This document shows, piece after piece, positions 40,792 to 63,117 of a stretch of 64,000 bases of DNA. Position 1 is the stretch's first letter; each line of letters opens with the position of its first letter. The DNA is taken from assembly GCA_947172415.1 (NCBI GenBank), contig OX359189.1, forward strand, positions 8,756,501-8,820,500. The letters run 5' to 3'. The notes under the pieces were generated by a model. That model made no database searches, was not told where the DNA came from, and saw only the letters and a program-made list of their open reading frames with translations. Both the position numbers and the translations under genes were made by a program. Source of the DNA: Chondrosia reniformis (taxonomy: Eukaryota > Porifera > Demospongiae > Chondrillida > Chondrillidae).

Positions 40792-43209
40792 TTAACCCTT
40801 ACTTGTATCAGAAGGGATGGTTGTGAGTGAGGTTGGAGGCAGGGGAGACTCTGAAGGAATATTAGCTGTGAGGGTATAGTATATCAGATGATTATGTACA
40901 TATACTGTTACAGCATAAGTGATCAATGGCTTACTCACTTCTAACTCTCACAGATTCACTCTCATCCATACTACCATCAGCATACACAACAGCACAAGAG
41001 TAGTTAGCCTCTCCATTGAGGAAGACACTCTTTCTTGTTGTCACACTCACAACTGTCTCAGTATTACTCTGGAATACATTCATATGGTATGCATCAGGTA
41101 GATTAATCCTCTCTCCATCCTTCATCCACAATATGGGACTGGTCTGATTGAAGATGGGTCCACTTGATGTAGTATCAGTTATATCATGATGGTGACAGGT
41201 GAGTTGGACTTGTCTGTCGTAACAAACTGGATTCTTTGATATCATAATAAACAAAGAATCTGAACAAAATTAGTAATCTCAATTATATATGCACAATGGA
41301 CTATGTAGTTGGTTTGACCTCACTTAATGTAGTAACTCCCATCTCCACTGTATCACTTCTGATAGTGCTATCCTCCACACTCTGTGCTGTAATGTTAACT
41401 TGATATGTAGTACTAGGAACCAGGTTAGATAGTGCAATGTTAGTAGTGGATGTAGTAGTTGAGATACATGTTGATACATCAGGTACTCCATTCTCAACAG
41501 TACACCATGAGATGATGAAGGAGAAGGTGTAGTCTTCAAAACACACTGAAGGATTGTGGTCCCAAGTGAGGGAGATGGAGAATATTCGAAGGTGCAGTTC
41601 TATTTGAGATGGACTGGCCAGTTCACCTACATTATACATATGACATAATTGAATCCATACGTAGTTATGTGACTGTCATTATACTTAAAAGGGAGGTGAT
41701 CTAATAATAATATAATATGTCCTAATGTGCACGTGGTATATAATCACACCATTGTATATACATACATACACGTATAATAATACGTACATTTAATATTTAA
41801 CTAGTCAACTCACTGACATTAGCTGAAACACTGTTACTCTTTTCTCTATCAAAAGGGAGGTAATCAGCACAACTTTGAAAAGCTATCTCATTGTTTGCTC
41901 CTTCATAAAATTAAGATTATACAAACAGTGCATCTATGGGATTTCAGGTGTCTACGTATGTATATACGCATTAGAGTAAGTTCAACTTCATATGATATAA
42001 CACATACCATAATTGAATTGTTCAGGATGTAAGATCAAAATGACTGTACAAGTAATCATACGTATGTACATACGTACATATATATAAAGTTAACTAGTCA
42101 ACTCACTGACATTAGCTGAAACATTATTACTGCTTCTCCTATCAAAAGTGTCACTTCTCACAATGAAGCAGTTGTAGTATGTTCCTGGTTCATACACTCC
42201 TCTTATGACATTGATCTGGAGACCTCTCATGGTAGAATTGATGATGACAGTCTGTTCAGTAATTCCATTAGGAGTGTAGTCCACTCCATTCCTCCTCCAG
42301 AGCACACCACCCAGGTATCCACTGCTCCCTCCCAGAGGAGGATGTGAACAGTTTATCTGATAAGTCTCTCCATAACACACTTCATCAGGTAGATCAGTCA
42401 GAGTGAGGACTGGATTACCTAGTTACAAGTAGTGGATTTAACCGACTAGAACCACTACCTAGTAACAAGTAGTAGATTTAACCGACTAGAACCACTACCT
42501 AGTAACAAGTAGTAGATTTAACCGACTAGAACCACTACCTAGTAACAAGTAGTAGATTTAACCGACTAGAACCACTACCTAGTAACAAGTAGTAGATTTA
42601 ACCGACTAGAACCACTACCTAGTGACAAGTAGTAGATTTAACCGACTAGAACCACTACCTAGTGACACCACAAAACTGCTACTTTGCTGTTGGCTAACAC
42701 TAAATAGAACTGTTAACTGCTTATCAATTCAACAGTCTATATTGGTGGATCAGTGAGAATGAGAATTGGGTGGCAAATATACAGAATAATTTATCTAATG
42801 TAAATACTTACGTATGTCCACCTAAGCAATCTTAGACTATATATCTAAGCGAGAATAAGTGCAGAGTGAAAAGGCCAATTTTATTATAGGCGTCGGAGCT
42901 GGGGCGTCTGGGGGGCGGTTTTGGCCGCCCCACTTTTGCTTCACCCCTCTTCTTTTTAACAAAAGCTTATAGCTTGTCAATGCGGCAAAGATATATAGTC
43001 AACAGTAGTACAACTTATTTTTATCAATGATAATAATGAGGCCTCTCCACTTTGTAAGTGCTTCCGACGCCTATGAAGATGCAGTGTAAGATGCAGTCTT
43101 ACATTCGACTTTATATATAATATGTCTGCCTACCGCTCTGCCATAAGCTTAAAACGGAACACAATGGAAGAACGAAGGAGAATTCCAGTGAAAGCTGCTG
43201 TACGGACAT
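40792..43209 (-). CDS. Receptor copy K: predicted soluble signal peptide-Ig-FN3-Ig protein
   Basis: Exons: signal peptide 43134-43209 (MSVQQLSLEFSFVLPLCSVL...), Ig1 42107-42418, FN3-1 41324-41626, Ig2 40939-41259, and a short last exon 40850-40792. The last exon has the acceptor and the first 16 residues of the usual FN3-2 exon (ESPLPPTSLTTIPSDT), then breaks off into spacer sequence and stops at 40792-40794. All joins are phase 1 and in frame. Ig1 has INCSHPP ... VLWRRNG ... YYNCFIV; Ig2 has QLTCHHHD ... ILWMKDGERI ... NYSCAVVYADG. Without TM and tail the product would be secreted, a possible decoy for H, I and J, whose first three domains are nearly the same. The intron-1 acceptor lies in an expanded 40-bp repeat. 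It may instead be a 3'-truncated dead copy. Confidence 0.65.
41812..41867 (-). pseudogene. Duplicated scrap of the Ig1 exon end in copy K
   Basis: The last codons of Ig1 with the donor (ACTCACTGACATTAGCTGAA on plus) occur a second time here, in the K intron between Ig1 and FN3-1, fused to intron text that H and I carry elsewhere. Confidence 0.6.
42418..42657. repeat. 40-bp minisatellite over the K Ig1 acceptor, 6 units
   Basis: Six tandem units containing AGATTTAACCGACTAGAACC. H, I and J have one unit each at the same place (for example 51,473-51,512 and 62,747-62,786). Each unit contains the acceptor-type sequence CTTGT(T/C)ACTAG on the minus strand, so the repeat multiplies candidate acceptors just upstream of Ig1. 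Confidence 0.9.
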
Positions 43210-44564
43210 CTTGATTGGAAGACCCATGGGGGATTCCCTTTCTACATGTGACAAACCCAATGATAACATTCTAAAGGTATATATTTGGCTGCAGCGCCGT
43301 TGTTACATTACAGTTCATTAGTTTATTTGCAACTGCGGGGGTCAAATAAAGACTAAGCTAATGTATGCAAATCAAATTTCAGTTGAAAGTTTAAATCTAT
43401 GGTAACAGTTTATTTGAAGGGAATGCCCCTAACTAAATTATATAAGAAGTAACCAGTAGTTAGATATATTTAGTAATCAAAATGCAAACACACCATTTCA
43501 TCTTCATCTTCATGTTTATAATGTTCATCCTCTTTAGATAAACTTAAATTATATGTGCACCTTATCTTTTTATATCAATGGTGATTATGCACATATAAGC
43601 ATCCTACAACTGACAATGTGCAGTATGTAAGCAATTTATATATAGATTTAGTAATTGGCCTATATATAGTAACTTCACCATCGGTCATGCAGCTACCAAT
43701 ACTTGTTTACAAAATTTACAGTGGGTATGGTCTTCAAGAGGAGTGGCTTCCTGTCCTGTACTAGCCTGGGTGTATCCCATAACTATATAAGTATATAATA
43801 TTGTTACCATGCATATAAATACACATATACATATATATTTCTACACATATAAACCTAGGAAGAATTTTAGTAATAATAGGTATATAATAATATACGTATG
43901 TGTGTATATAGCAAACACTCCCTTCAATTTCCTAATTTGTATGAATAGGAATTTGTGTGGGAGGAAAAAGATGACTATTTAGGATTCATACGGTTGCTAA
44001 GTAGGTAATTCCCCATTATGTGTTTATATGGATTTGAGTACATATAGGTATATATTGGATACAGGGTATGTATACATAATATTAAGAGGAGATAATATAC
44101 ATTATATTGCTGATGAAGACCAATGGGTTAAAATGTTCTATTCCAAAGATCAAATATAATTTGCTAGCACTAGTACTGTTGCTCAATAATCCTTATATCT
44201 CATCATGATTGCAACATAATCCCTATCACTTTAATGTTAACTTGATATGTAGTACTAGGAACCAGGTTAGATAGTGTAATATCAGTAGTGGATGTAGTAG
44301 TTGAGTTACATGTTGATACTCCACTTGGGAGGACAATCCCTCATTGTGTTTTGAAGACTACTCTTCTCCTTCACCATCTCATGGTGTACTGTTGAGTGAA
44401 GAAGGAGAACAATTACAAAGCTGTAGTGTATATGTTTTAGATTATACGTATAATAAAATACAATGCCACCTAATCTGGTCATCTGTGGGAGCTATATACG
44501 TACATATACATACATTTGGCTGTATTAGATAGGTTTAAATGTACGTGTGTAATATTGTATGTTT
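43210..44564. repeat. Intergenic duplicated block, unit 1
   Basis: It matches about 51,909-53,369 almost throughout. No intact gene; an FN3-1 exon relic lies at 44,231-44,395. Confidence 0.65.
44231..44395 (-). pseudogene. Relic of an FN3-1 exon (unit 1)
   Basis: Minus-strand match to the exon at 50,548-50,850 (CTCCATTCTC region lost; VPSTTYQVNI and CFEDYSSPSP text recognisable), with an internal deletion that breaks the frame. Its twin lies at 53,037-53,205. Confidence 0.7.
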
Positions 44565-44575
44565 CAGGACATTGC

Positions 44576-45304
44576 TTTTGAATTTTGTCATGGGAGTTTG
44601 GCCACACTTAAAGGTTTTGTTAGCAAAATGGGCAAAAGATGAAAATATTGTACATGTAAGCTGAAATGATGTTCATCAAAAGGAGTCATGTGATACTCAT
44701 GTTATGGTCATCTGATGTTTTATTTTCCTTGTCTTAGGCCATTTGTGTTTGTTTACAAAGAATTATTAGGACCCTTGGCATGCAGTATGCTGTGTTGCTG
44801 AGAGACACTAGCGAGGTCCTTCCCCAGTACCTAGATGCCATGAGGCATCCACGCATTATAGATGTCACCAGTCAGGTATGATAGACCCTTCCACATGACA
44901 TTGGTATTCAAGATGCCATTTTCCTATTTACAAAATGAACTAGTAAATATATTAGTTAAGCGAAACATTCAATCAGTAGCTGGGTGCTGTTCTCCTTCCG
45001 TTAAGCTGATATCTATGTATCCACAAAGGCCTCCCACAACCTGAATCTCCCTATCAACAAATATGGCTGTCCCAGGAGTACACTACAGTAGGTGACATAT
45101 ATACGTATGTGTAAGGTCCACACAAGGTTGATTGATTGTAGGAGTGGAGGCCTTGCAGGCTAGTGAGCAGCATACCGTGTTATCAGCAGGAACTTTATTA
45201 GTATGTTGGCTCTCAGCTCTTCCTCATGTATAGTATATATTATCTGGTGAATGCTACTGGTTCTTATACTTGATGCAGTGTGCCTACCTCATTCAGGACA
45301 TTGC
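44576..45304 (+). other. Unit-1-only segment with plus-strand exon-like pieces
   Basis: Unit 2 (53,370-53,380) has a single TTCAGGACATTGC where unit 1 has two (44,563-44,575 and 45,292-45,304) with this segment between. On the plus strand, 44738-44875 reads as a clean 46-codon exon between TTAG and GTATGA, with RTLGMQYAVLLRDTSEVLPQ in its middle and PRIIDVTSQ at its end. 45142-45200 reads VEALQASEQHTVLSAGTLL between GTAG and GTATGT. The frames look protein-like, but I do not recognise the protein and no start or stop is seen. It may be a transposed gene fragment, or part of a gene deleted from unit 2. Confidence 0.4.
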
Positions 45305-45478
45305 TGTGTCAGCCATTGATAGAAACTCTCTAAATGTACATGTTTTCTGTAGCTTTTTGCTGGCAATCATTCATTCAATATCATAAATGTAGCTACTTAT
45401 ACGAAGGTACGTATATGTATATATTAGTTGGACAGGTATAATCATGTGCATTTTAATCATGCATTGACACTCTGATCA

Positions 45479-46436
45479 TCAAAACCAGTTCACAAATATA
45501 GCCATTGCAATAGCTATGGCCATCCAAGAGATTCCTTTGGTATTTCCCAAAGCATCTGCATCTGTGAAATAAAGAGACTATAGAATAAGGCATTGTAAGG
45601 GAGTCCTCACTTCTTACCACTTGTCCTGACTGTTATTTCCTGAAGTTCACTACAGTGAGCTCCATAACAAGAGTTTATTTGTACAGTGTAAGTAGTTGAA
45701 GGATTTAGATTTGTAAAAGTGTACTGATTTCCCTCTTCAATGTCTTCTTCATGATTACCATCATTTGAAAAGCAAGACACCTTATATGTTACATTTAAAT
45801 CACACTCTGAAGATACAGGATCCCAAAACACTGTAATGGCTGTTAGTGAAGTTACGGGTTCAAGAAGATTCACTTCACTTGGAACTACTTATATAAGAAT
45901 AATACAACGTACAGCAATGATAACACATGATGAAGTATTATTGCAGTTATAATGATATACCGTACCTTTAGCAATAATAGTGACTACCTCACTAAGCTCC
46001 CTGCCTCTAGTAACTTGATTAGCAATAAAAGCTTGATATGTAGTACCAAAGGGAAAGTCACCTCCACAAGTAATTGTTAGTGTAGTTCTTGTTGCTGCAG
46101 TGGAAACCTCCTCAAAGAGACCATCTGGAACATAGTCACTTCCATTTCTTATCCACATTATACTTGGCAGATAACCAGAGTCTCCACCAAGTTCAGGATG
46201 AGTAAACGTTATAGTGACGCTACCACCAAGACAAACTGCCACTTCTCCTGATTGATCAACATGGATAGTAACATGGATAGTAGCTAAAATACAAGAGGAA
46301 TATTACTGAACTGATAGAGCTGAACAAGGATTGACATCATGTGAAACTGAAGTATTTGATCACAATCAACATTAGTAGCTTACTCACCATAGGTAAGATG
46401 AAGTAGAACAAACAAAACAAGAAGTTTGGCTTTCAT
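45479..46436 (-). CDS. Gene F: small Ig-FN3 protein with C-terminal GPI-type signal
   Basis: Four exons, all in frame: signal peptide 46388-46436 (MKAKLLVLFVLLHLTY), Ig 45966-46283, FN3 45618-45884, last exon 45479-45561; 238 residues. The C-terminus after the FN3 domain reads TSDADALGNTKG then ISWMAIAIAMAIFVNWF and stops. This is a small-residue site, a short spacer and a hydrophobic end with no cytoplasmic tail, which fits a GPI-anchor signal (inference; a bare TM anchor is the alternative). The Ig domain is related to Ig1 of H-K (THPELGGDSGYL ... MWIRNGSDY), but both core cysteines are replaced (ITFTHP, TYQAFIA). FN3 has CDLNVTYKVSCF and ELQEITVRTS. It lies between K and H in the same orientation. 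Confidence 0.75.
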
Positions 46437-46705
46437 TTCGACAATGTGTCTAACTCTCACTCCTGTTTATCTACATATTGTATGTTACAAATAGTAAGAT
46501 AAAATGTAATTGTAAATGAGTACGTATACATACTAGTGGGTAATCTATAAACACACAAGCCTTTGTGTATACGTATATACTCCATGGCTTTGAATGACTA
46601 AATTACAGGTACTACATATAGCCGACTCGAGGTTACAATCGACACAATAATAGGATAGAACAATGCTGTAACAGTTTCAATTTCAGATTGTATAGTTATA
46701 CATAC

Positions 46706-46760
46706 CTTGGGATCGTCTTTCTAATGTACTTCTTGGTAAACGAGAGTATTTCCGGCAAAA
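46706..46760 (-). promoter_or_regulatory. Conserved upstream block of gene F (possible 5' UTR exon)
   Basis: Minus strand: CGGAAATACTCTCG ... AAGACGATCCCAAG|GTATGT. Related blocks end in a donor at 8,587, 21,890, 40,552 and 54,767, while the sequence is not conserved as protein. Located 270 bp upstream of the F start codon, it would serve as a non-coding first exon or promoter-proximal element (inference). Confidence 0.4.
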
Positions 46761-46805
46761 TGGATGACAGACTATCCATTGTATATAGCTGATAATCTGA
46801 CAACT

Positions 46806-46991
46806 TCACTTTTCCTGATAGATCAACAATGATAGTTGCTGAAATACAAGAGGAATATTACTGAACTGATAGAGCCAAGCAAGGATTGACATCATGTGAA
46901 ACTAAAGTATTTAATCACAATCAACAATAGTAGCTTACTCACCATAGGTAAGATGAAGTAGAACAAACAAAACAAGAAGTTTGCCTTTCAT
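46806..46991 (-). pseudogene. Gene L: broken copy of gene F
   Basis: A signal-peptide exon at 46943-46991 (MKGKLLVLFVLLHLTY, GTGAGT donor) is followed by the first codons of the Ig exon (TIIVDLSGK) ending near 46,806, where the sequence passes into the FN3-flank/upstream block of gene F. The rest of the Ig domain, the FN3 and the anchor exon are missing. Confidence 0.75.
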
Positions 46992-47474
46992 TTCTTTTAT
47001 ATTTGTGTTTAACTCTCACTCCTTTTTACCTACGTATTGTATGTTAAAGATAAAATGTAATTGTAAACGAGTACATACTAGCAGGTAGTCTATAAATACA
47101 CAAGTCCTTTGTGTATACGTATATACTCCATGGCTTTGAAGGACTAAATTATGAACTATAAAGAATAGAATGCAAGAAGTATTAGTAAGAAAGACGATCC
47201 CGAGGTATGTAATAGTTTAAATAACTACAAAATACACAAAATAGTAACAGCAACTTGACGAATGAGAGTATTTCCACTTACAAGGCAAAAGTACTTGAAC
47301 ACACAAAGTCTTCAGATGCAATCAGTTCCTGTAAATTTACAAACACAAGTGTTTTGAGAAAAAAGTAAAATGGATGACAGACTATCCATCCACTTTCCAT
47401 ATTTCCTTGCAGTGACACTGGTACATACATATACAGTATACAAACTGAACTGACCGTTTATCATTGTAGCTGAT

Positions 47475-47738
47475 AATCTTACAAGTTCACTCCTGATACT
47501 TGGGTAGTCTTCTTTTCAGTAAGCTCCAACTTCAATCTCATAAGATGTACCAGGAGTAAGACCTTTAATAGTGTAGGATGTTTCAATAGTGGTTGTATTC
47601 CTCAAACTAGATCCATCTCCACTCTGTTGCCATGTTACCTCATACATGAAGGTACACTTCTCAAAACACTCATCACTGTGGGACCACATCAGGGAGATAC
47701 TTGTATCAGAAGGGATGGATGTGAGTGAGGTTGGAGGT
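47475..47738 (-). pseudogene. Relic of an FN3-2 exon (unit 1)
   Basis: Most of the exon is preserved (WSHSDECFEKCTF ... SYTIKGLTPGTSYEIEVGAY), but TGA follows GAY where paralogues have Cys. It is flanked by spacer sequence, not by a TM exon. Its twin is at 55,025-55,283. Confidence 0.7.
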
Positions 47739-48814
47739 GATATCTACATACATATAATTTAATAGTAGAATGAACATATTGATAGTACTGCTATAGGATA
47801 TATACTGCATAATATAGGTATATGGATACACAATGTGAGTAATAATTTGTTGAGTGTTTCACTTGATCTTATCTTTTCTGAAGACCTTGTTCTCATTATA
47901 TTCTAATAAAGTTAGCCAGTGTACCTTCTATAGCTACTTTAGCCTTAATTAAAATTAGTCACTGAATTTTACATACATTTGTATGATAGAATAAAGATTC
48001 ATTGTTACAATGTTACAATGATAAGCAAGATCGTTGAGCTTTCTGTAGCAGAATGAAACAATTAAGAATATTTGAGAACTTTTCAGTCAGTAGAATAAAA
48101 CCAATGTAACCTATTAGTGTTAAATTCAGATGATGAAGTTCTATACACTTTTATATATATTGTAGTTGCACTTCTACTCATTCTTTAGTGTCCCTGCCAC
48201 CATTTTATCATGCATAATCAAAGTTTCAGGGCATTCCCCTTATGACTATGTATGCAATATTATTTATGCTTTATATAATAATATAGGCTATATATATGTA
48301 TAATAGCAATTATTATAGTCTCAAACAAGTTATCTTTAATGATATATTCACTATAAACAAAATCATGGCCAGTGACTTACCAATAAACAGTAACTGGTGG
48401 CTGTCCTTGTATATATATCTCTAAACATGTACTACTTCCTCACTGATGTACGTATTACTGTATATCAACCAACACTTTCTAGGTCAGATACATAAGGCAT
48501 ATATTATTTCAGTTATAAATTTAGAGTGAGTATTAATTTACTTGTAATATATAATTCTACTAAATACGTACGTAGCTGACTGTAGCTGACTGTATATCTT
48601 TTGGGCCAATTGGCACTTTGAACTACATCTGAATGTTCTTGCCATCCATTTTCACATGAATAACCAATACACCATTCTTACATGCTAGACATTGAGATTG
48701 GTTCATGTACTCTAGTGAGGTTGGTGGAGATGGCTTCATTAGATATTGACAGAGAGAGACAGAGTGACAGATGAGCTAATAGGAACACTCTACTCAGTAT
48801 CACCATCATCATAT

Positions 48815-49263: not shown

Positions 49264-49379
49264 TCACAGGTTAACATAAGTTGGTTTATCTTCAATCTGA
49301 TTCATCTCAATAGGTACATAAGCAGGATTCTTTTCCATTTCATCATCATTAATACCTTCAATATGAGGATGTAATGAAT
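49264..49379 (-). other. ITAM-like tail exon of H
   Basis: The last exon encodes SLHPHIEGINDDEMEKNPA followed by the two tyrosine motifs YVPI and YVNL at the very C-terminus, stop TGA at 49264-49266. The protein sequence is identical in I (56469-56584), where the stop is TAA and synonymous changes are present. Confidence 0.8.
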
Positions 49380-51908
49380 CTGTATCATAATGGTGAAACC
49401 AAAATTTATAAAAATTCATTTTTAAAAGGTTGTTAATCATATTTAGTTATTGAACAATTTGAATAGATACAGTATAGCTAACCTTTTGACCTTTGTGGAG
49501 GAATCTTGTGATTTCTTCTGTACACATAAGCAGCTGCTACACATGTAACTATGAATATACTCAAATTAATTACAAAAAGTGAAATAAACACAATTGAAGT
49601 GATTATCCATGAACTGCAGACTGAATTACCTGTAGATGTACATAGAAGAGAAAATGAGAAAAATGGAAAATGAAGTTTAATGGATGAATATACGTACATG
49701 ACTATATATCTTTCCCTAGAAATATAAATCGGATGCAAATGACTGTCATATTCTACAATGACACTTTATGTACATATTGAATACATACATACTTAGCTGA
49801 TCATTTATTGCTGTTACTGATGATAATTTAATGTCACTTCTAATGTTCAAGTCCTCTTTACAATAAGCTCCAACTCCAATCTCATAAGATGTACCAGGAG
49901 TAAGATCTTCAATAGTGTAGGATGTTTCAGTAGTCGTTATGACAGATTTCACTGAACTAGATCCTTGTTGCCATGTTACCTCATACATGAAGGTACAGTT
50001 CTCAAAACACTCATCACTGTGGGACCACATCAGGGAGATACTTGTATCAGAAGGGACGGATGTGAGTGAGGTTGGAGGAAGGGGAGACTCTGAAGGGATA
50101 CCAGCTATAGTTATATTAACACTTATTATTAGCAGAAGTATTCAATGGCTTATTTACCTCTAACTCTCACAGTCACAGGTTCACTCTCTTCCATACTACC
50201 ATCAGCATACACAACAGCACAAGAGTAGTTAGCCTCTCCATTGAGGAAGACACTCTTTCTTGTTGTCACACTCACAACTGTCTCAGTATTACTCTGGGAT
50301 ACAACCATATGGTATGTATCAGGTAGATCAATCCTCTCTCCATCCTTCATCCACACTACAGGACTGGTCTGATTGAAGATGGGTCCACTTGATGTAGTAT
50401 CAGTTATATCATGATGGTGACAGGTGAGTTGGACTTGTCTGTCATAACACACTGGATTCTTTGATATCATAATAAACAAAGAATCTAACCAAAATTAGTA
50501 ATCTCAATTATATATGCATGTATGAACAATGGATGGTTTAAACTCACTTAATGTAGTCACTTTCATCTCCACTGTATCACTTCTGATAGTGCTATTCTCC
50601 ACACTCTGTGCTGTAATGTTAACTTGATATGTAGTACTAGGAACCAGGTTAGATAGTGTAATGTCAGTAGTGGATGTAGTTGTTGAGTAACATGTTGATA
50701 CATCAGGTACTCCATTCTCAACAGTACACCATGAGATGGTGAAGGAGAAGGTGTAGTCTTCAAAACACACTGAGGGATTGTGGTCCCAAGTGAGGGAGAT
50801 GGAGAATATTCGAAGATGCAGCTCTATTTGAGATGGACTGGCCAGTTCACCTACATTCATAGGACATGATCAAACCTGGAGTTACGCCTTAAAAGGGAGG
50901 CAATCAGCACAACATTGAAAAGCTATCTCATTGTTTGCTCCTTCATAAAATTAAGATTATACAAACAGTGCAGTGTGGAATTTCAGGTGTCTATGTGTAC
51001 ATATACGCATTAGTTAAGTAAGTTCAACTTCATATGATATAATATAACACATACCATAATTGAATTGTTCAGGATGTGAGATCAAAATGACTGTCCAAGT
51101 AATCATATGTACATATTTATAAAGTTAAACTAGTCAACTATTTAACTACAAGTCAACTCACTGACATTAGCTGAAACACTGTTACTGTTTCTCCTATCAA
51201 AAGTGTCACTTCTCACAATGAAGCAGTTGTAGTATGTTCCTGGTTCATACACTCCTCTTATGACATTGATCTGCAGACCTCTCACTGTAGAACTGATGAT
51301 GACAGTCTGTTCAGTAATTCCATTAGGAGTGTAGTCCACTCCATTCCTCATCCACAGCACACCAGCCAGGTATCCACTGCTCCCTCCCAGAGGAGGATGT
51401 GAACAGTTTATCTGATAAGTCTCTCCATAACACACTTCATCAGATAGATCAGTCAGAGTGGGGACTGCATTACCTAGTGACAAGTAGTAGATTTAACCGA
51501 CTAGAACCATTGCCTAGTGACACCACAAAACTGCTACTTTGCTATTGGCTAATGCTAAAATAGAACTGTCAACTGCTTATCAATTCAACAGGCCTGAGAC
51601 TATACTATACTATATGGACCAGTGAGAGTGAGAATTGGATCTGAATAGACTAGTGTCAAATATACAGAATATTTATCTAAAGCAAATTAAGAATAAATGT
51701 CCACATAAGTAAGTAATATCTAGACGAGAATAAGTGCAGCGTGAAAAGACCAATTTAATAAACAACGCTGCCTCTTTTATAAATCTATAAGCGATGTTAC
51801 GTATACATTCGACCTTATATATGTCTACCTACCGCTCTGCCATAAGCTTAAAACCGAACACAATAGAAGAACGAAGGAAAATTCCAGTGAAAGCTGCTGT
51901 ACGGACAT
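49264..51908 (-). CDS. Receptor copy H: Ig-FN3-Ig-FN3 receptor with ITAM-like tail
   Basis: Seven exons, all in frame, 525 residues: signal peptide 51833-51908 (FSFVLLLCSVLSLWQS core), Ig1 51162-51473, FN3-1 50548-50850, Ig2 50158-50484, FN3-2 49793-50089, TM 49483-49629, tail 49264-49379. Every intron is phase 1. Ig1: INCSHPPLGGSSGYLAGVLW and YYNCFIV; Ig2: QLTCHHHD, VVWMKDGERI, NYSCAVVYADG. TM: ITSIVFISLFVINLSIFIVT with no charged residue, then YRRNHK. The tail ends YVPIEMNQIEDKPTYVNL, i.e. Yxx(I)-x10-Yxx(L), within the ITAM spacing range; YVNL also fits a Grb2-type YxN site. Expected role (inference): activating surface receptor coupled to Syk- or Src-type kinases. FN3-2 differs from the copy in I in one patch (GSSSVKSVI for SGDGSSLRNT). 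Confidence 0.8.
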
Positions 51909-53543
51909 CTTGATTTGGAAGACCATGGGGATTCCCTTTTTACATGTGACAAGCCACAGCCACAAGTAACATTCTAAAGGCATATATTTGGCTGAAGCTT
52001 CGTTGTTACATTACAAGTTTATTTACAACTGCAGGGGTCAAATGTAGACTATATGTATGCATATCAAATTTCAGTTGAAAGAAAGTTTCAATCTATGGCA
52101 ACAATTTGTATGAAGGGAATGCCCTTAACTAAATTATATAATTACGTATATATAATTAGTGTAACCAGTAGTTACATATATTCAGTACTCAAGCAAACCA
52201 TTTCATCTTCGTCTTCATGTTTAATGTACTCTTCTATAGATAAAGGCAAATTAAACACATCATATAGTTATATAGAAGATGTTAATTATATGTGCACCTA
52301 ATCTTTTTATATCAATGGTGATTATGCACATATATACGTATATACCTCCAATAACTGACAATGTGTAGTATGTGAGTAACATATTCCTAAATAATTTATA
52401 GATATAGTATGTAATTGGTCTATATATAGTAACTTCACCATCAGTCAGCTATATACCAATATAAAACCTGGCACAATCAGGTGTGCAAATGGTATTTATA
52501 ATTACTTAGGAAAATATTCAGTTTACTTGTTTGCAAAATTTTCAGTGGGTATGGTCTTCAAGAGGAGTGGCTTCCTGTCCTGTACTAGCCTGGGTGTATC
52601 CCATAACTACACAAGTATATAATATTGTTACCATGCATATAAATACACATATACATATATACTTCTACACATATAAACTTAGGAAGAATTTTAGTAATAA
52701 TAGGTATATAATAATATACATACGTATGTGTGTATATAGCAAACACTCCCTTCAATTTCCTAATTTGTATGAATAGGAATGTTTGTGGGAGGAAAAAGAT
52801 GACTATTTAGGATTCATACGGTAAGTAGGTAATTCCCCATTATGTGTTTATATGGATTTGAGTACATATACATATAATATTGGATACAGGGTATGTATAC
52901 ATAATATTAAGAGGAGATATAATATTGCTGATGAAGACCAATGGGTTAAAATGTTCTATTCCAAAGATCTAATGTTGCTAGCACTGTTGTTCAATAATCC
53001 TTATATCTCATCATGATTGCAACATAAACCCTATCACTTTAATGTTAACTTGATATGTAGTACTAGGAACCAGGTTAGATAGTGTAATGTCAGTAGTGGA
53101 TGTAGTAGTTGAGTTACAATGTTGATACTCCACTTGGGAGCACAATCCCTCATTGTGTTTTGAAGACTACACCTTCTCCTTCACCATCTCATGGTGTACT
53201 GTTGAGTGAAGAAGGAGAACAATTACAAAGCTGTAGTGTATATGTGTTAGATTATACGTATATACAATGCCACCTAATCTGGTCATCTGTGGGAGCTATA
53301 TACAGTACATATACATACATTTGGCTGTATTAGATAGGTTTAAATGTACGTATGTAATATTGTATGTTTCAGGACATTGCTGTGTCAGCCATTGATGGAA
53401 ACTCTCTAAATGTACATGTGTTCTGTAGCTTTTTTGCTGGCAATGCATTCAATATCATAAATGTAGCTACTTATATGAAGGTATATGTATATATTAGTTG
53501 GTATAATCATGTGCATTTTGATCATGCATTGACACTCTGATCA
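51909..53543. repeat. Intergenic duplicated block, unit 2
   Basis: Parallel to 43,210-45,478 but lacking the 729-bp segment at 44,576-45,304. It contains an FN3-1 relic at 53,037-53,205. No intact gene. Confidence 0.65.
53037..53205 (-). pseudogene. Relic of an FN3-1 exon (unit 2)
   Basis: Twin of 44,231-44,395 with the same internal deletion, so the exon was already broken before the unit was duplicated. Confidence 0.7.
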
Positions 53544-54493
53544 TCAAAACCAGTCCGCAAATATAGCCATTGCAATAGGTATGGCCATCCAAGAGATTCC
53601 TTTGGTATTTCCCAAAGCATCTGCATCTGTGAAATAAAGAGGCTATATAGAAGTACGTATAGCATTGTAAGGGAGTCCTCACTTCTTACCACTTGTCCTG
53701 ACTGTTATTTCCTGAAGTTCACTACAGTGAGCTCCATAACAAGAGCTTACTTGTACAGTATAAGTAGTTAAAGCAGTTAGATTTGTAAAAGTGTACTGAT
53801 TTCCCTCTTCCATGTCTTCTTCATGATTACCATTATTTGAAAAGCAAGACACCTTATATGTTACATTTAAATCACACTCTGAAGATCTCAAAGGTCCCAA
53901 AACACTGTAATGGCTGTTAGTGAAGTTCTGGCTTCAAGAAGATTTACTTCACTTGGAACTATATAAGAATAATAAAACAGCAATGATTACACATGCATGG
54001 TGAAATATTATTGAACTTATAATGATATACCTTTAGCAATAATAGTGATTATCTCACTAAACTCCCTGCCTCTAGTAGCTTGATTAATAATGAAAGCTTG
54101 ATAGGTAGTACCAAAAGGAAAGTCACCTCCACAGGTAATTATTAGTGTAGTTTTGGTTGCTGTAGTGGTAATGTCCTCAAAGAGACCATCTGGATTATAG
54201 TCACTTCCATTTCTTATCCACATAATACTTGGCAGATAACCAGAGTCTCCACCAAGTTCAGGATGAGTAAACGTTACAGTGATGCTACCACCAGGACAAA
54301 CTGCCACTTCTCCTGATAGATCTACACGGATAGCAGCTAAAATACCTACAAGAGGAATATAACTGAACTGATAGAGCTGAACAAGGATTGACATCATGTG
54401 AAACTGAAGTATTTAATCACAATCAACATTAGTAGCTTACTCACCATAGGTCAGATGAACTAGAACAAACAAAACAAGAAGTTTGGCTTTCAT
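53544..54493 (-). pseudogene. Gene G: frameshifted paralogue of gene F
   Basis: Same four exons as F: signal peptide 54445-54493 (MKAKLLVLFVLVHLTY), Ig 54031-54336, FN3 53690-53958, anchor exon 53544-53626. The FN3 exon is 269 nt against 267 in F: two extra bases in TGGGACCTTTGAGATCTTCA shift the frame and give TGA directly after Trp-Asp-Leu. The Ig exon and the anchor exon (ISWMAIPIAMAIF) remain intact, so the loss looks recent. The Ig core cysteines are absent, as in F. Confidence 0.8.
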
Positions 54494-55024: not shown

Positions 55025-55283
55025 AATCTTACAAGTTCACTCCTGATACTTGGGTACCGGTCAATAAGCTCCAACTCCAATCTCATAAGATGTATATACC
55101 AGGAGTAAGACCTTCAATATTGTAGAATGTTTCATTAGTGGTTATATTCCTCAAACTAGATCCATCTCCACTCTGTTGCCATGTTACCTCATACATGAAG
55201 GTACAGTTCTCAAAATACTCATCACTGTAGGACCACATTAGGGAGATACTTGTATCAGAAGGGACGGATGTGAGTGAGGTTTG
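55025..55283 (-). pseudogene. Relic of an FN3-2 exon (unit 2)
   Basis: Same relic as 47,475-47,738, further decayed: WSYSDEYFENCTF shows two lost positions (His to Tyr, Cys to Tyr) and the C-terminal part has indels. Confidence 0.7.
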
Positions 55284-55439
55284 TGGTGATATCTACATGC
55301 ATATAATTATAATTTAATAGTAGAATGAACATTCACTAGATATACTAAGTCATGGCCAGTGACTTACCAATATACAGTAGCTGGTGGTTGTATGTCTCTA
55401 AACATGAGAAATATCTACAATGCTATTTGGCTATTCTGT

Positions 55440-55615
55440 AAAAAACCAATAGGGGAACTAAACCTAAAGAGAGCTTTGGATGATGAAGATACAAGAGTCT
55501 TTTCTTTTTTTTCCTTTCTTTCATCTTCTGGATCAGACACTGTTTCTGAGAATTCCACCCTTCATCAGTGATCCTCGGAGTCATTGTCTTTTTGATCCTC
55601 TGTCAATCCTTGGCT
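55440..55615 (+). mobile_element. Short copy of the 18,020 element
   Basis: Contains GGGGAACTAAACCTAAAGAG, a T/C-rich middle and TCATCAGTGATCCTCGGAGT, matching 18,020-18,430 on the opposite strand with an internal deletion. It is absent from the equivalent place in unit 1 (about 48,435). Confidence 0.6.
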
Positions 55616-56014
55616 CACAGATGTAGGTACATACGTATATCAACCAACACTTCCTAGGTAAGTACATAAGGCATATATATATATTATATTTCAGTTAAAA
55701 ATTTAGAGTGAGTAATTTATTACTTGTAATATTTAATTCTATTAAATACGTATGTAGCTGACTGTTATAAATCATTTGGGCCAATTGGCACTTTTAATTA
55801 CATCTGAATAGTACTTACCATCCATTTTCACATGAAGAATCAATACATTATTTTTCTTACATGCTAGACTTTGAGATTGCATGGTCCACGCGTATCCTAG
55901 CTGAGGTTGGTGGAGATGGCTTCATTAGATCTTGACAGAGAGAGACAGAGTGACAGATGAGCTAATAGGAACACTCTACTCAGTATCACCATCATCATAT
56001 TTTGATCCCATTCA

Positions 56015-56102
56015 TCCTCTATAACATATCCACTACCCCCTCCAAGAGGAGGATGTGTATAAATCTCTCCATAACACACTTCATCAGGTAGAGCAGTCAG
56101 TT
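56015..56102 (-). pseudogene. Relic of an Ig1 exon (unit 2)
   Basis: Twin of 48,815-48,917 (VCYGEIYTHPPLGGGSGY), same deletion and unrelated continuation. Confidence 0.65.
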
Positions 56103-56468
56103 GGAGATGTAAAACCTATATATATAATATTTTAGTATCGTGATAATAAATTCACATCAAATGATAAAACTGACTGTATATATTACAGTGGCCTATACCT
56201 CTACAGGGTATATATCTAATATAAAAGACATATTAACATCTATCTATATAAGGTTTATAGAACATATACGTAGAATATTCTCATGACAGTTACTGCATAA
56301 TAAATGGAGTCATAATATCAGTCACCTTACTCAGATTAAATAGAGCCGCCATTTAATACATACTCACATGATATGATAGTTACTGACTTATCTACTGCAA
56401 TTATACAAGGTATATTCGTATATAAAGCTAATTAATACATTCACAGGTTAACATAACATAATTCATAT

Positions 56469-59072
56469 TTAGAGATTCACATAAGTTGGTTTATCTTCAA
56501 TTTGATTCATCTCAATAGGTACATAAGCAGGATTCTTTTCCATTTCATCATCATTAATACCTTCAATATGAGGATGCAATGAATCTATATCATAATAGTG
56601 AAACCAAAATTTATCAAAATTCATTTGTAAAAGGTTGTTAATCATAATTAGTTATTGAACAATTTGAATAGATACAGTATAGCTAACCTTTTGACCTTTG
56701 TGGAGGAATCTTGTGACTTCTTCTATACACATAAGCAGCTGTTATACATGTAACTATGAATATACTCAAATTAATTACAAAAAGTGAAATAAACACAATT
56801 GAAGTGATCATCCATGAACTGCAGACTGAATTACCTGTAGATGTACACAGAAGAGAAAATGAGAAAAGAATGGAAAATGAAGTTTAACGGATGAATATAC
56901 GTACATGACTATATATCTTTCCCTAGAAATATAAATTGGATGCAAATGACTGTCATATTCTACAATGACACTTTATGTACATATTGAATATAGACATACC
57001 TAGCTGATCATTTATTGCTGTTACTGATGATAATTTAATGTCACTTCTAATGTTCAAGTCCTCTTTACAATAAGCTCCAACTCCAATCTCATAAGATGTA
57101 CCAGGAGTAAGATCTTCAATAGTGTAGGATGTTTCAGTAGTCGTTGTATTCCTCAAACTAGATCCATCTCCACTCTGTTGCCATGTTACCTCATACATGA
57201 AGGTACAGTTCTCAAAACACTCATCACTGTGGGACCACATCAGGGAGATACTTGTATCAGAAGGGACGGATGTGAGTGCAGTTGGAGGAAGGGGAGACTC
57301 TGAAGGAATACCAGCTACAGCTATATTAACACTTATTATTAGCAGAAGTATTCAATGGCTTATTTACCTCTAACTCTCACAGTCACAGGTTCACTCTCCT
57401 CCATACTACCATCAGCATACACAACAGCACAACAGTAGTTAGCCTCTCCATTGAGGAAGACACTCTTTCTTGTTGTCACACTCACAACTGTCTCAGTATT
57501 ACTCTGGGATACAACCATATGGTATGTATCAGGTAGATCAATCCTCTCTCCATCCTTCATCCACACTACAGGACTGGTCTGATTGAAGATAGGTTCACTT
57601 GATGTAGTATCAGTTATATCATGATGGTGACAGGTGAGTTGGACTTGTCTGTCATAACAGACTGGATTCTTTGATATCATAATAAACAAAGAATCTAAAC
57701 AAAATTAGTAATCTCAATTATATTCATATGAACAATAGACTAGCTGGTTTGAACTCACTTAATGTAGTAACTTTCATCTCCACTGTATAACTTCTGATAG
57801 TGCTATTCTCCACACTCTGTGCTGTAATGTTAACTTGATATGTAGTACTAGGAACCAGGTTAGATAGTGTAATGTCAGTAGTGGATGTAGTAGTTGAGTT
57901 ACATGTTGATACATCAGGTACTCCATTCTCAACAGTACACCATGAGATGGTGAAGGAGTAGGTGTAGTCTTCAAAACAAACTGAGGGATTGTGGTCCCAA
58001 GTGAAGGAGATGGAGAATATTCGAAGATGCAGCTCTATTTGAGATGGACTGGCCAGTTCACCTACATTCATAGGACATGATTGAACCTGGAGTTACACCT
58101 TAAAAGGGAGGTAATCAGCACAACATTGAAAAGCTATCTCATTGTTTGCTCCTTCGTAAAATTAAGATTATACTAACAGTGCATCTATGGGATTTTAGTT
58201 GTCTACGTATGCATATACGCATTAGAGTAAGTTCAACTTCATATGATATAACACATACCATAATTGAATTGTTCAGGTGTAAGATCAAAATGACTGTCCA
58301 AGTAATCATACGTATGTACATACGTACATATAATATTTAACTAGCCAACTCACTGACATTAGCTGAAACACTGTTACTGTTTCTCCTATCAAAAGTGTCA
58401 CTTCTCACAATGAAGCAGTTGTAGTATGTTCCTGGTTCATACACTCCTCTTATGACATTGATCTGCAGACCTCTCACAGTAGAATTGATGGTGACAATCT
58501 GTTCAGTAATTCCATTAGGAGTGTAGTCCACTCCATTCCTCCTCCAGAGCACACCAGCCAGGTATCCAGTACTCACATTCAGTACAGGATGTGTACAGTT
58601 TATCTGATAAGTCTCTCCATAACACACTTCATCAGGTAGATCAGTCAGAGTGGGGACTGCATTACCTAGTAACAAGTAGTAGATTTAACCGACTAGAACC
58701 ACTACCTAATGACACCACAAAACTGCTACTTTACTATTGGCTAATGCTAAAATAGAACTGTCAACTGCTTATCAATTCAACAGTCTATATTGGTGGGTCA
58801 GTGAGAATTGGGTGGCAAATATACAGAATAATTATCTAAAGCACATTAAGAATAAATGTCCACCTAAGCAATCTTAGACTTTATATCTAAGCGAGAATAA
58901 GTGCAGCGTGAAAAGACCAATTTAATAAATAACACTATAAATGTGTATATAATATATACGTACAGTCTTACATACACGTTCGACCTTAATATGTCTGCCT
59001 ACCGCTCTGCAATAAGCTTAAAACCGAACACAAAACGAAGGAAAATTCCAGTGAAAGTTGCTGTACGGACAT
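56469..59072 (-). CDS. Receptor copy I: Ig-FN3-Ig-FN3 receptor with ITAM-like tail
   Basis: Seven exons, in frame, 524 residues: signal peptide 59003-59072 (two codons shorter than H; MSVQQLSLEFSFVLCSVL), Ig1 58354-58665, FN3-1 57759-58061, Ig2 57368-57694, FN3-2 57000-57299, TM 56688-56834, tail 56469-56584. Intron phases, TM and tail match H; the tail again ends YVPI-x10-YVNL. Ig1 differs from H and K in one concentrated patch (CTHPVLNVSTGYLAG for CSHPPLGGSSGYLAG) that it shares with J. Ig2 has NYCCAVV where other copies have NYSCAVV, an extra cysteine next to the core one. Probably an activating surface receptor like H. Confidence 0.8.
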
Positions 59073-60411
59073 CTTGATTGGAAGACCATGGGGGGTTCCC
59101 TTTTTCACAAAGTCATGTGACAAACCAAAGGAATAGATAACATCATACGTAGTATAGATAATCTATGATAACATTTGGCAGAGGCGAAGATCGATTGTGA
59201 TGCTTCGATTAAACTTTAATGCAACAATGGCATAGGAGAAATAATCCTTTAACTTGCAGGGGTCAAATACATGGATGGGAACTTAATAGCTTGTATGCAT
59301 ATAGGCCAGTTGAAAGATAGTTTCAATTCTATGGCAACAGTTTGTATGAAGGGATTACCCCTACCACTCAGTTTGAATTGAAAAACCTGTAATTACATAC
59401 GCGTATGTATTCAGTACTCGAGCAAACCATTTCACCTTCAATTTATATTTGGTTTGTATAATACGTTTCTATATGTAGATAAACTTTAGTTAATTGAACA
59501 CACTTATTTGAACAAATGATACTTGCATAAACCTAATTAATTTTTTATTATGACAATGCGGTTATATAAATATGCAGTCCTACAGTAGGTCAATCCACTA
59601 ACTGACTATGTGCAGTAACATAAATGGTAATATGCATAATTTAGCTTAATGTGCCATATATAACAACCTTATATTTACTCACACAAGCAAAAAGCTTGTG
59701 CTTTCCTTATAGCAGCAGATAAGGGGTTTGCCAATTTGCTCATTGCACTCCTCAGGGGACATGAGTGGGCAGGGGTAATATCCAGAGTTTAATGATGATG
59801 ACATTGATGCTTAAAGATCGGCTTTAATTTGATCTTAAAATCCCCTATTTTATCTTGCACAATCAGTTGTGTAACTGCATCCCATTGCATTTACTTATAG
59901 TTTACTTGTTTACCAAATTTACACAATCAAGGCCATTCCATTCCAAGAATTCAAGATGTGTGGTTTCCTGTTTGTGCAGAACTATATGTATAGCTATGGG
60001 AGACACCCAGGCTATTGCAGGACAAACTAGTAAGATTTTGAATAATAATAGATATGGCCATGAACGCTATTCTTGTATATGCACAAAGTCATTACTGGTA
60101 GTATGGCTTATAGCATAGATGACCATATATATATATATATATATACATATCTATATATATCAGACACTCCTTCAATTTCCTACTCATTATTGTCATAACA
60201 ACTATCTATATATAGGAATGTGTGTGGGAGGAAAAAGGTGACTATTTAGGATTCATACGGTAAAGCAGTAGGTAAAGTCCCCAATTTGTGTTGATGGATT
60301 TAGGTACATACCTATTGGATGTTTCTGTAGGGTATACATATTACAAGTTAAAATTAAAAACATTACTACTGTATACATTACTGTGTCATATGTATACATT
60401 CACTTGACCAG
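59073..60411. other. Spacer between J and I
   Basis: No gene. The left part resembles the region upstream of K and H signal exons. About 59,755-59,830 is a half-copy of the inverted repeat at 33,387. A TA run lies at 60,126-60,145. Confidence 0.55.
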
Positions 60412-60522
60412 TTATTTCACAACAGTCACAGTGGCATATTGGACTTGGAACATTTCATTCTCCATATGATGAGGTCTGTCTTCTTCAGATTTGTGCTGTA
60501 ACTCAGCGTATGTAAGTGTGTC
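60412..60522 (-). other. ITIM tail exon of J
   Basis: A 37-codon phase-0 exon opening DTLTYAELQHKSEEDRP and closing FQVQYATVTVVK, stop TAA at 60412-60414. Both tyrosines have the hydrophobic residue at -2 and Leu/Val at +3 required of an ITIM. Confidence 0.82.
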
Positions 60523-63117
60523 CTATATAAGTCATAATAAAAAGAGAATTGAGGCATTGCAGTACTTCTATATAAGTATGTAGTCTAAGAGCATTTGTTA
60601 CTTAATTATTGATACCAAAGATCCTCTAGCACAAGTCATGAAATATCATGCGATTGCCATTCAATTAAAGCACATTCGTGTATGACAAGTAAATTACCCA
60701 TACTAACTGACCTTGGTAGGTTGGTATATATTTCTGTTCATTTCAATAGTTTCTCCATTATTTCTTTGGGATATATCTGGTGGACCTTTGTGTTTTCTTC
60801 TTACAAAGATCACAATCAGTATAACTGCAACAACTATTATGACTACCACAAGAACTGCCAGAACAACTCCAACTATTACTCCAACAGGTAATGTTCTGGT
60901 AGCTGTATCATCAAAGGAAGTTTAGATATTTAAGATTTAAAATTTAAGCCAGGACTACGTACCTCACATTTGCATTAAACAAGGGTTATTATAGTAATTA
61001 TTATAAGAGTATAAATAATGGAAAATTACGAACGTACGTAGGTATAAGTCAAAGGCTTATATACAGATTAAACTAGTTCTAACTAAACTAGCAGATGTAC
61101 ATGTACATGCATTAGCTAACAGAAGATATACTTTTTAACAAATTTGGATCCCCTCACAATAATATGCTCTTAACTGTTAATTGTACGAACTTTACGTACC
61201 TACAATTGTTTTCACACTTATAGAAGAAATACACTGTTGACAGTTTAATAAAGTTCTTACTTAAAGTTTTTGTTACTGTAACATTTCTTTTACTCCTAAT
61301 ATTGGCATTCTCTTTACAATAAGCTCCAACTTCAATCTCATAAGATGTACCAGGAGTAAGACCTTCAATAGTGTAGGATGTTTCAGTAGTGGTTGTATTC
61401 CTCAAACTAGATCCATCTCCACTCTGTTGCCATGTTACCTCATACATGAAGGTACAGTTCTCAAAACACTCATCACTGTGGGACCACATCAGGGAGATAC
61501 TTGTATCAGAAGGGACGGATGTGAGTGAGGTTGGAGGAAGGGGAGACTCTGAAGGAATTGACATACCTAACAATCTCAGCACTGTGGAAGCAAGAAACAT
61601 ACTCACCTCTAACTCTCACAGTCACAGGTTCACTCTCCTCCATACTACCATCAGCATACACAACAGCACAAGAGTAGTTAGCCTCTCCATTGAGGAAGAC
61701 ACTCTTTCTTGTTGTCACACTCACAACTGTCTCAGTATTACTCTGCCATACAACCATATGGTATGTATCAGGTAGATCAATCCTCTCTCCATCCTTCATC
61801 CACACTACAGGACTGGCCTGATTGAAGATGGGTCCACTTGATGTAGTATCAGTTATATCATGATGGTGACAGGTGAGTTGGACTTGTCTGTCATAACAGA
61901 CTGGATTCTTTGATATCATAATAAACAAAGAATCTAAACAAAATTAGTATTCTCAATTAGAGACTAGCTGGTTTGAATAATAATGGACTGTGTAGTTGGT
62001 TTAAACTCACTTAATGTAGTAACTTTCATCTCCACTGTATCACTTTTGATAGTGCTATTCTCCACACTCTGTGCTGTAATGTTAACTTGATATGTAGTAC
62101 TAGGAACCAGGTTAGATAGTGTAATGTCAGTAGTGGATGTAGTAGTTGAGTTACATGTTAATACATCAGGTACTCCATTCTCAACAGTACACCATGAGAT
62201 GATGAAGGAGAAGGTGTAGTCTTCAAAACACACTGAGGGATTGTGGTCCCAAGTGAAGGAGATGGAGAATATTCGAAAGTGCAGTTCTATTTGAGATGGA
62301 CTAGCTAGTTCACCTATGTACATAGGACATACATGAATCCAGTAATATAATATAAAGTGACTGTCCTAATGTGGTAATCATACCATTGTATGTACATAAT
62401 ATCACGTACATATAATATTTAACTAGTTAACTCACTGACATTAGCCGAAACACTGTTACTGTTTCTCCTATCAAAAGTGTCACTTCTCACAATGAAGCAG
62501 TTGTAGTATGTTCCTGGTTCATACACTCCTCTTATGACATTGATCTGGAGACCTCTCACTGTAGAATTGATGATGACAAGCTGTTCAGTAATTCCATTAG
62601 GAGTGTAGTCCACTCCATTCCTCCTCCAGAGCACACCAGCCAGGTATCCAGTACTCACATTCAGTACAGGATGTGTACAGTTTATCTGATAAGTCTCTCC
62701 ATAACACACTTCATCAGGTAGATCAGTCAGAGTGGGGACTGCATTACCTAGTGACAAGTAGTAGATTTATCCGACTAGAACCACTGCCTAGTGACACCAC
62801 AAAACTGCTACTTTGCTGTTGGCTAATGCTAAAATAGAACTGTCAACTGCTCATCAATTCAACAAAAAAGTTCAATGAATCTGTTACCTGGTACACTCTT
62901 GGAGTTAGACTGATATAATGTGAAAAGCATTTGCCAATGACAAAAATTGGGTGTCCCGAATTGTATATTATCGGTATATTAATATGAATTAAAATATTAC
63001 ATTAATGTAGCCATTAGGGTAAGAATGGTGGATGGATGGATAAAAGCAACTAGTATCTATTACCAAAGGAAATATCTTACCTTGGTGAATTAGAGAGATT
63101 ATAACAAGAAAGTACAT
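60412..63117 (-). CDS. Receptor copy J: Ig-FN3-Ig-FN3 receptor with two ITIMs
   Basis: Seven exons, in frame, 522 residues: signal peptide 63081-63117 (MYFLVIISLIHQ), Ig1 62436-62747, FN3-1 62011-62313, Ig2 61607-61933, FN3-2 61261-61548, TM plus proximal tail 60712-60902, last exon 60412-60522. Ectodomain introns are phase 1; the tail intron is phase 0. The ectodomain is almost the same as in H and I (CTHPVLNVSTGYL patch shared with I). The TM exon is unrelated to theirs: GVIVGVVLAVLVVVIIVVAV then ILIVIFVRRKHK. The tail contains LTYAEL and VQYATV, both matching the ITIM pattern (I/V/L/S)-x-Y-x-x-(I/V/L), 22 residues apart, plus NIYQPT. Expected role (inference): inhibitory receptor recruiting SHP-type phosphatases. 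Different signal, TM and tail exons around a shared ectodomain indicate exon or segment exchange. Confidence 0.82.

What the first reader, a model, noticed from the sequence alone, without database searches (positions are those of the whole stretch)
40792..63117. Paired receptor cluster: one ectodomain, several signalling endings
Seen: K, H, I and J share signal peptide-Ig-FN3-Ig (and FN3 except K), with near-identical Ig2 exons, yet H and I end in an ITAM-like tail, J in two ITIMs and K in a premature stop. F, an Ig-FN3 gene with a GPI-type end, lies between K and H. Known: vertebrate LILR, SIRP, KIR and Siglec clusters combine activating and inhibitory members with similar ectodomains. Inference: this animal, probably a sponge, has an independently evolved paired receptor system, perhaps for self/non-self or microbial recognition. 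I know of no description of this locus.
Basis: partly seen in the sequence, partly recalled or inferred. Interest (0 to 1): 0.92.

Follow-up and report, generated by a model that had tools for sequence, protein, structure and literature searches.

The report
Sponge paired activating/inhibitory receptor cluster
A sponge chromosome carries a large family of cell-surface receptor genes in which almost the same outer part is joined either to a stop-type or to a go-type signalling tail, an arrangement used by immune receptors of vertebrates and not found described for a sponge in the papers searched.

Summary
The genome matches the sponge Chondrosia reniformis, chromosome 1. J, I and H have intact SP-Ig-FN3-Ig-FN3-TM-tail models with GT-AG, phase-1 ectodomain introns. 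J and I are 92-94% identical in DNA to the end of the second FN3, then share nothing detectable: J ends in tandem ITIMs (LTYAEL, VQYATV, tyrosines 24 apart), I and H in YVPI-x10-YVNL (ITAM-like). K is truncated; F is Ig-FN3 with a GPI-type end. About 10 kb outside the window, a head-to-head pair has 1.6-kb ectodomain blocks 97% identical, one with an ITIM tail, one ITAM-like. Genome matches include 76 Ig2 exons, 71 ITAM-like, 8 ITIM-class and 15 third-class tails (exon matches, not intact genes). Across groups, Ig2 and FN2 are alike at silent sites while Ig1 and FN1 are not. Syk-like and SHP-2-like genes exist. Best reading: a germline mix-and-match paired receptor family using the ITAM/ITIM switch. 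Expression, phosphorylation and ligand are untested; the ITAM spacing (10) exceeds the classic 6-8. New variant of a known kind.

The parts
60412..63117 (-). Gene J, inhibitory-type: SP 63117-63081, Ig1 62747-62436, FN1 62313-62011, Ig2 61933-61607, FN2 61566-61261, TM 60902-60712, tail 60522-60412 with LTYAEL and VQYATV
   Evidence: model; spacing and shuffle; fn3
56469..59072 (-). Gene I, activating-type: SP 59072-59003, Ig1 58665-58354, FN1 58061-57759, Ig2 57694-57368, FN2 57314-57000, TM 56834-56688, tail 56584-56469 with YVPI-x10-YVNL
49264..51908 (-). Gene H, activating-type: SP 51908-51833, Ig1 51473-51162, FN1 50850-50548, Ig2 50484-50158, FN2 50104-49793, TM 49629-49483, tail 49379-49264
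   Evidence: fn3; versus I pN/pS 0.46 whole, 0.22 TM plus tail
40792..43209 (-). Gene K: SP, Ig1, FN1, Ig2, then stop early in FN2; decoy or pseudogene
   Evidence: versus H ectodomain pN/pS 0.65
45479..46436 (-). Gene F: SP, Ig, FN3, hydrophobic C-terminus of GPI type
   Evidence: fn3 over cut-off
53544..54493 (-). F2: copy of F with a frameshift in FN3, probable pseudogene
   Evidence: duplicated unit
10059..15460 (-). g2: Ig1 of another type 15460-15209, FN1 13761-13453, Ig2 13284-12976, FN2 12916-12650 (homology matches, not exon ends), TM exon about 12023-11776 with its own stop, candidate tail exon 10175-10059 SYYADL..GVYDEV (join inferred, phase 0)
27629..34175 (-). g4: Ig1 34175-33867, Ig2 31525-31223, FN2 31164-30922, TM exon about 30386-30142, tail exon 27745-27629 SYYADL..GVYDEV (join inferred)
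3670..5824 (-). g1: weak FN1 5824-5531, Ig2 5418-5116, FN2 5052-4750, tail SYYADL..GVYNEV in the frame 3843-3670; no clear TM exon seen
22625..24521 (-). g3: Ig1 24521-24282, Ig2 23271-22954, FN2 22894-22625; no TM or tail recognised

Best explanation
This is part of a large, clustered, germline family of sponge cell-surface receptors that work as paired activating and inhibitory receptors. Nearly the same four-domain ectodomain (Ig-FN3-Ig-FN3), presumably seeing the same or related ligands, is joined either to a tail with tandem ITIMs whose tyrosines lie 22-24 residues apart (J, J2 and relatives; expected to recruit a tandem-SH2 SHP-type phosphatase) or to an ITAM-like tail (H, I, P and 68 more listed tail exons; expected to recruit a Syk-type kinase). 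The repertoire is remodelled by duplication and gene conversion of exon cassettes, which keeps Ig2 and FN2 alike across groups of genes, lets Ig1 and FN1 differ between groups, and swaps TM-tail cassettes. Shown: gene structure, sequence mosaic, motif conservation, and presence of SHP- and Syk-like genes. Inferred: expression, phosphorylation, opposing signalling, shared ligand, and gene conversion as the process.
For: J and I share 92-94% DNA identity through the ectodomain and no blastn match after FN2; P and J2, head to head with candidate start codons 162 bp apart, share one 1,622-bp block at 97.2% that starts 3 bp before the Ig1 exon and ends about 80 bp past FN2, and have different tail classes. 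Tails: 8 ITIM-class places, 6 with two strict ITIMs and 2 with one; of 6 non-redundant tails scored, 5 have two strict ITIMs 23-24 apart. ITAM-like: 56 tails read, first tyrosine in 56, second in 55, L/I/V at its +3 in 50. J/J2 tail changes 6 silent:1 replacement; two other ITIM-class pairs 3:3 (pN/pS 0.25) and 10:15 (0.43). Of 76 Ig2 exons, 29 have an ITAM-like, 9 a third-class and 3 an ITIM tail within 5 kb downstream, 35 none found. dS medians Ig1 1.12, FN1 1.42, Ig2 0.071, FN2 0.10; g2 versus J: 1.42, 1.54, 0.06, 0.08. Syk/ZAP-70-like locus (E 9e-47) and SHP-2-like locus (E 6e-46), both from pieces joined by me; one unjoined Syk-like piece E 6e-25.
Against: No transcript or protein evidence. 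ITAM-like spacing is 10, not 6-8, and 6 of 56 tails read lack the last L/I/V (4 of them cut short). NPAY and YVNL also fit PTB and Grb2 docking (recalled motifs). No Pfam Ig model passes. The FN2-to-TM donor in J2 and P is weak (A|GTGACC). 35 of 76 Ig2 exons have no tail found; several copies are pseudogenes. Only 3 Ig2 exons are followed by an ITIM-class tail, so clear inhibitory partners are few. Within the J/I/H/K/J2/P group all four exons are similar (dS below 0.3), so the contrast between exons appears only across groups.
Confidence: 0.68

Rival explanations
1. Only the ITIM side is immune-type. The H/I tail is an NPxY plus pYxN docking tail (PTB adaptors or endocytosis, Grb2), so the pair contrasts adhesion or growth signalling with phosphatase signalling rather than Syk activation with inhibition.
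For: N-P-A-Y and the N two residues after the second tyrosine are invariant in the 52 full-length tails tabulated although ITAMs do not require them; spacing is 10.
Against: Among the 52 tabulated tails position +3 is I/V in 52 after the first tyrosine and L in 50 after the second, as ITAMs need; a Syk-like gene is present; the CD3-epsilon ITAM also starts NPxY (recalled, no call).
Confidence: 0.3
2. An adhesion-molecule family with regulatory tails, for example for cell sorting; near-identity reflects recent tandem duplication and no ligand pairing is involved.
For: Ig-FN3 architecture and matches to NCAM, LAR and Dscam domains; [quoted passage not shown] H-F and I-F2 are a tandem duplication.
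Against: Tail classes differ on the same ectodomain and keep tyrosine motifs under constraint.
Confidence: 0.2
3. Mostly decaying repeats: a locus of duplicated pseudogenes in which tails and ectodomains are not co-expressed.
For: K truncated, F2 frameshifted, C10 tail fragments, 35 of 76 Ig2 exons without a tail, stops inside many matched stretches (some lie in introns).
Against: J, I and H are open over 528-530 codons with GT-AG sites; pN/pS below 1; J/J2 tail 6 silent:1 replacement.
Confidence: 0.1

Closest known systems
Vertebrate paired receptors (SIRP, LILR, KIR, Siglec, PILR; recalled)
   Same: Clustered genes, near-identical ectodomains, inhibitory members with ITIMs
   Different: Activating-type members here carry their own ITAM-like tail instead of a charged TM with an adaptor; ectodomain is Ig-FN3-Ig-FN3; none of these families among the listed rows of Pfam and PDB sequence searches
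Botryllus fester co-receptors (FcoR), 53 loci (PMC12065747, passages)
   Same: IgSF multigene family with ITIM or hemITAM-type tails, in an allorecognition locus
   Different: FcoR is IgV-sushi-Ig-Ig and pairs with fester; here Ig-FN3 repeats, ITAM-like not hemITAM, no sushi domain among the Pfam rows shown for J and H
Hydractinia Alr allorecognition genes (PMC12065747, passages; primary paper not held)
   Same: Invertebrate candidate allorecognition genes with ITIM/ITAM motifs
   Different: Cnidarian; primary sequences not compared here
[quoted passage not shown]
   Same: Sponge Ig-domain surface proteins, upregulated after grafting
   Different: No ITIM/ITAM tails of sponge proteins mentioned in the passages seen
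Oyster CgIgIT2 (passage in PMC11999971)
   Same: Invertebrate IgSF receptor with an ITAM in its own tail
   Different: Five Ig domains; no paired inhibitory twin mentioned in the passage

Membership tests
Paired receptor family (functional kind) | Near-identical ectodomains joined to divergent signalling ends | tested here: met
   J/I, J/H, P/J2 DNA comparison
Paired receptor family (functional kind) | Inhibitory members with ITIM ([ILVS]xYxx[ILV]) | tested here: met
   J LTYAEL and VQYATV; shuffle 0.0005; other loci. Motif level only
Paired receptor family (functional kind) | Activating members (ITAM, or charged TM plus adaptor) | tested here: inconclusive
   Own YVPI-x10-YVNL tail; no charged residue in the TM core of H and I as read; spacing outside 6-8
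Paired receptor family (functional kind) | Genomic clustering | tested here: met
   Window and C1 7.7-9.46 Mb, with further matches elsewhere
Paired receptor family (functional kind) | Opposite signalling outputs | not testable with these tools
   Needs cell experiments
Canonical ITAM | Yxx[LI]-x6-8-Yxx[LI] | tested here: not met
   Spacing 10; the wider 6-12 form is met
Immunoglobulin superfamily | Ig fold | tested here: met
Fibronectin type III | Pfam fn3 over cut-off | tested here: met
   J 9.8e-19, H 1.4e-17, F 7e-7
LILR/KIR/SIRP/Siglec by descent | Sequence homology of ectodomains | tested here: inconclusive
   No such family among listed Pfam or PDB sequence rows (lists capped); absence is weak evidence

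The most novel reading that the evidence does not exclude
A sponge has a germline-encoded, combinatorial paired receptor superlocus (relatives over about 1.8 Mb of one chromosome and on other chromosomes) with a variable Ig1-FN1 part, a gene-converted constant Ig2-FN2 part and swappable ITIM or ITAM-like endings, including a head-to-head pair around a 162-bp region between candidate start codons. It serves self/non-self (graft or symbiont) discrimination, so the ITAM/ITIM balance decision would reach back to the base of animals.
Probability: 0.3. Interest if true: 0.93.

Novelty: new variant of a known kind. Interest (0 to 1): 0.8.

Why it matters
A 2025 review notes that candidate allorecognition proteins of sponges, cnidarians and ascidians are not conserved, and that systems from cnidarians to mammals converge on the same ITAM/ITIM signalling (PMC12065747, passages). 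Sponges are the missing point in that statement. A sponge family with both tail types on one ectodomain, in a genome with Syk-like and SHP-2-like genes, makes the age of the activating/inhibitory receptor balance directly testable, and gives candidate receptors for sponge graft rejection and symbiont recognition.

Tried and rejected
Pfam scan for Ig domains: no Ig model passed, so Ig was tested by structure and profile comparison. AlphaFold of Ig2 failed, probably for lack of diversity in the alignment. Relatives in the 5.8-billion protein set: only the window's own predicted protein in two searches (each scored 7990 candidates). Chance motifs considered and set aside. False duplication in assembly: H-F and I-F2 are a tandem unit of about 7 kb, and the paper says four haplotypic duplications were removed; a false copy of that unit is not excluded, but J versus I/H and P versus J2 do not depend on it. 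Homogenised introns hold only in part: I versus J ectodomain exons are 89-98% identical, while the Ig2-FN2 intron is unalignable (22 of 40). Weak Pfam SIT match on the J TM-tail (E 0.0057, below cut-off) is not counted. LILR, KIR, SIRP or Siglec did not appear in the listed rows; this excludes nothing. Rows dropped before counts: the ITAM-like list keeps 71 of 126 matches (TM-only and some weak rows dropped), the third class 15 of 20 (second matches near another dropped), the ITIM class 8 places (two C10 fragments dropped), and Ig2 76 of the 130 matches (other exons). These tools score only the best candidates, so counts are lower bounds and are of exon matches, not intact genes. The 52 tails tabulated are 49 of 56 loci read plus H, I and P; the 7 left out are 2 ITIM-class, 1 without a tail in the stretch, and 4 ITAM-like ones with an incomplete second motif (two end after YVN or YVT, one after YI, one lost the second tyrosine). 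dS sets were chosen by similarity to J, so medians are biased low; the g2-versus-J comparison within single genes is free of that.
Full report
Source. The window is C1:8756501-8820500 of a 117,379,552-bp, 15-contig genome. The paper on Chondrosia reniformis odChoReni1.1 (PMC12181767; outline and sections 7 and 10 read) gives 117.37 Mb, 14 chromosomes plus mitochondrion, N50 8,459,200 bp and chromosome 1 of 10.41 Mb; contig C7 here is 8,459,200 bp and C1 is 10,409,357 bp. I take the species as established; small differences in total and longest length are unexplained.

Gene models. Hand models from the minus-strand sequence give J, I and H as seven-exon genes of 528-530 aa, with GT-AG sites and phase-1 ectodomain introns. 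The FN3 domains are over the Pfam cut-off in the proteins scanned, J, H and F, and J matches solved FN3 domains. Ig1 is predicted with pLDDT 88.9 and matches Ig folds such as NCAM, RAGE and Ig-beta. Ig2 has no good model but aligns to Ig1 by profile. H plus F and I plus F2 are a tandemly duplicated unit of about 7 kb.

One ectodomain, two endings. J and I are 92-94% identical in two DNA blocks that run from about 115 bp before Ig1 to the end of the FN2 core, with no blastn match after that; I and H match over 2,764 bp including TM and tail. Beyond the window, at C1:8830080-8835923, gene J2 (minus) and gene P (plus) lie head to head. Their candidate start codons are 162 bp apart; one 1,622-bp block at 97.2% identity covers the four-domain ectodomain, from 3 bp before the Ig1 exon to about 80 bp past FN2. 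J2 ends DTLTYAEL..VQYATV, P ends NPAYVPI..YVNL. Their FN2-to-TM donor is weak (A|GTGACC), so this join is uncertain.

Tails. ITIM-class tails were found at 8 places: 6 have two strict ITIMs, 2 have one because the last residue of the second is T. Six non-redundant ones were scored: five have two strict ITIMs with tyrosines 23-24 apart, the sixth has tyrosines 22 apart. Shuffles give two ITIMs at suitable spacing in 0.0001-0.006 of trials. ITAM-like tails: 71 places kept; 56 read, with the first tyrosine in 56, the second in 55 and L/I/V at its +3 in 50. The group was found by similarity, so conservation is partly ascertained; pN/pS is 0.40 over 36 distinct sequences. A third class (SYYADL..GVYDEV) has one strict ITIM plus YDEV and lies downstream of three genes in the window; in g2 and g4 the TM exon before it also has its own stop, so the join is inferred. 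Between J and J2 tails there are 6 silent and 1 replacement changes; two other ITIM-class pairs have 3:3 and 10:15.

Mix and match. Of 76 Ig2 exons, 29 are followed within 5 kb by an ITAM-like tail, 9 by the third class, 3 by an ITIM tail and 35 by none found. The Ig1 type of gene g2 occurs upstream of the third class (g2), of an ITIM tail (L107, 85% alike) and of an ITAM-like tail (L105, 61% alike); exon joins there are inferred from order and strand. Silent-site divergence differs by exon: medians 1.12 (Ig1), 1.42 (FN1), 0.071 (Ig2), 0.10 (FN2). Within the J/I/H/K/J2/P group all four exons are similar, so the contrast is between groups. g2 versus J has dS 1.42, 1.54, 0.06 and 0.08 for the same four exons, which duplication of whole genes does not give. 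In L010 and L011 the Ig2 exon is diverged in its first part and identical to the family in its last 27 (L010) or in a stretch of 22 residues (L011), which looks like a conversion break inside an exon.

Signalling partners. A locus at C6:6839000-6843500 encodes tandem SH2 domains and a kinase start closest to ZAP-70 and Syk (E 9e-47, pieces joined; one unjoined piece E 6e-25). A locus at C3:9108000-9117500 encodes tandem SH2 plus phosphatase pieces closest to SHP-2 (E 6e-46, joined), with further SH2 pieces beside it. A paper passage also notes Syk in sponges (PMC9486129).

Mechanism. Most likely the two receptor types see the same or related ligands and report through opposite phosphotyrosine signals; a cell would weigh them. 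Everything after the protein sequences is inference. The main weakness is the ITAM-like tail: spacing 10, with invariant NPAY and YxNL that also fit PTB and Grb2 docking (recalled motifs).

Known or not. Searches of the open-licence library listed no paper that by title describes ITIM/ITAM-bearing sponge receptors, and passages seen in PMC11999971, PMC12065747, PMC2248247 and PMC9505182 name none; the other listed papers, apart from passages in PMC9486129, were not opened. Passages in a 2025 review describe such motifs for Hydractinia and Botryllus. Most subscription papers are not held, so this is not proof of absence. I rate it a new variant of a known kind.

Noticed in passing
42416-42667: A 40-bp unit repeated 6.3 times (98% match) just before the Ig1 exon of K; the unit contains the splice-acceptor stretch itself, so the acceptor region has been multiplied.
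   Followed up: partly
44233-44396 and 53041-53206: Fragments of the FN1 exon on both strands, back to back, downstream of F and of F2: fold-back remnants that sit in both copies of the duplicated unit.
   Followed up: partly
about 46780-46990: A third, aborted F start (signal-peptide exon followed by a short fragment) upstream of F.
   Followed up: no
63728-64000: End of another minus-strand gene with an FN3-like stretch, TM segment and basic short tail, running off the window edge; an F-like Ig follows at C1:8821045.
   Followed up: no
C1:9290000-9460000 (L105, L010, L011): Array of ITAM-like tail exons (39 of the 71 listed), several in convergent tail-to-tail pairs about 0.5 kb apart.
   Followed up: partly
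C9:1355380-1360658 and C9:6614595-6699240: SH2 domains in long open frames: three per frame in two frames at the first place, several frames of 395-409 aa at the second.
   Followed up: no
L020, L021 (C10:5178425, C10:5193336): Two near-identical copies of a broken J-type tail with VQYATV.
   Followed up: no
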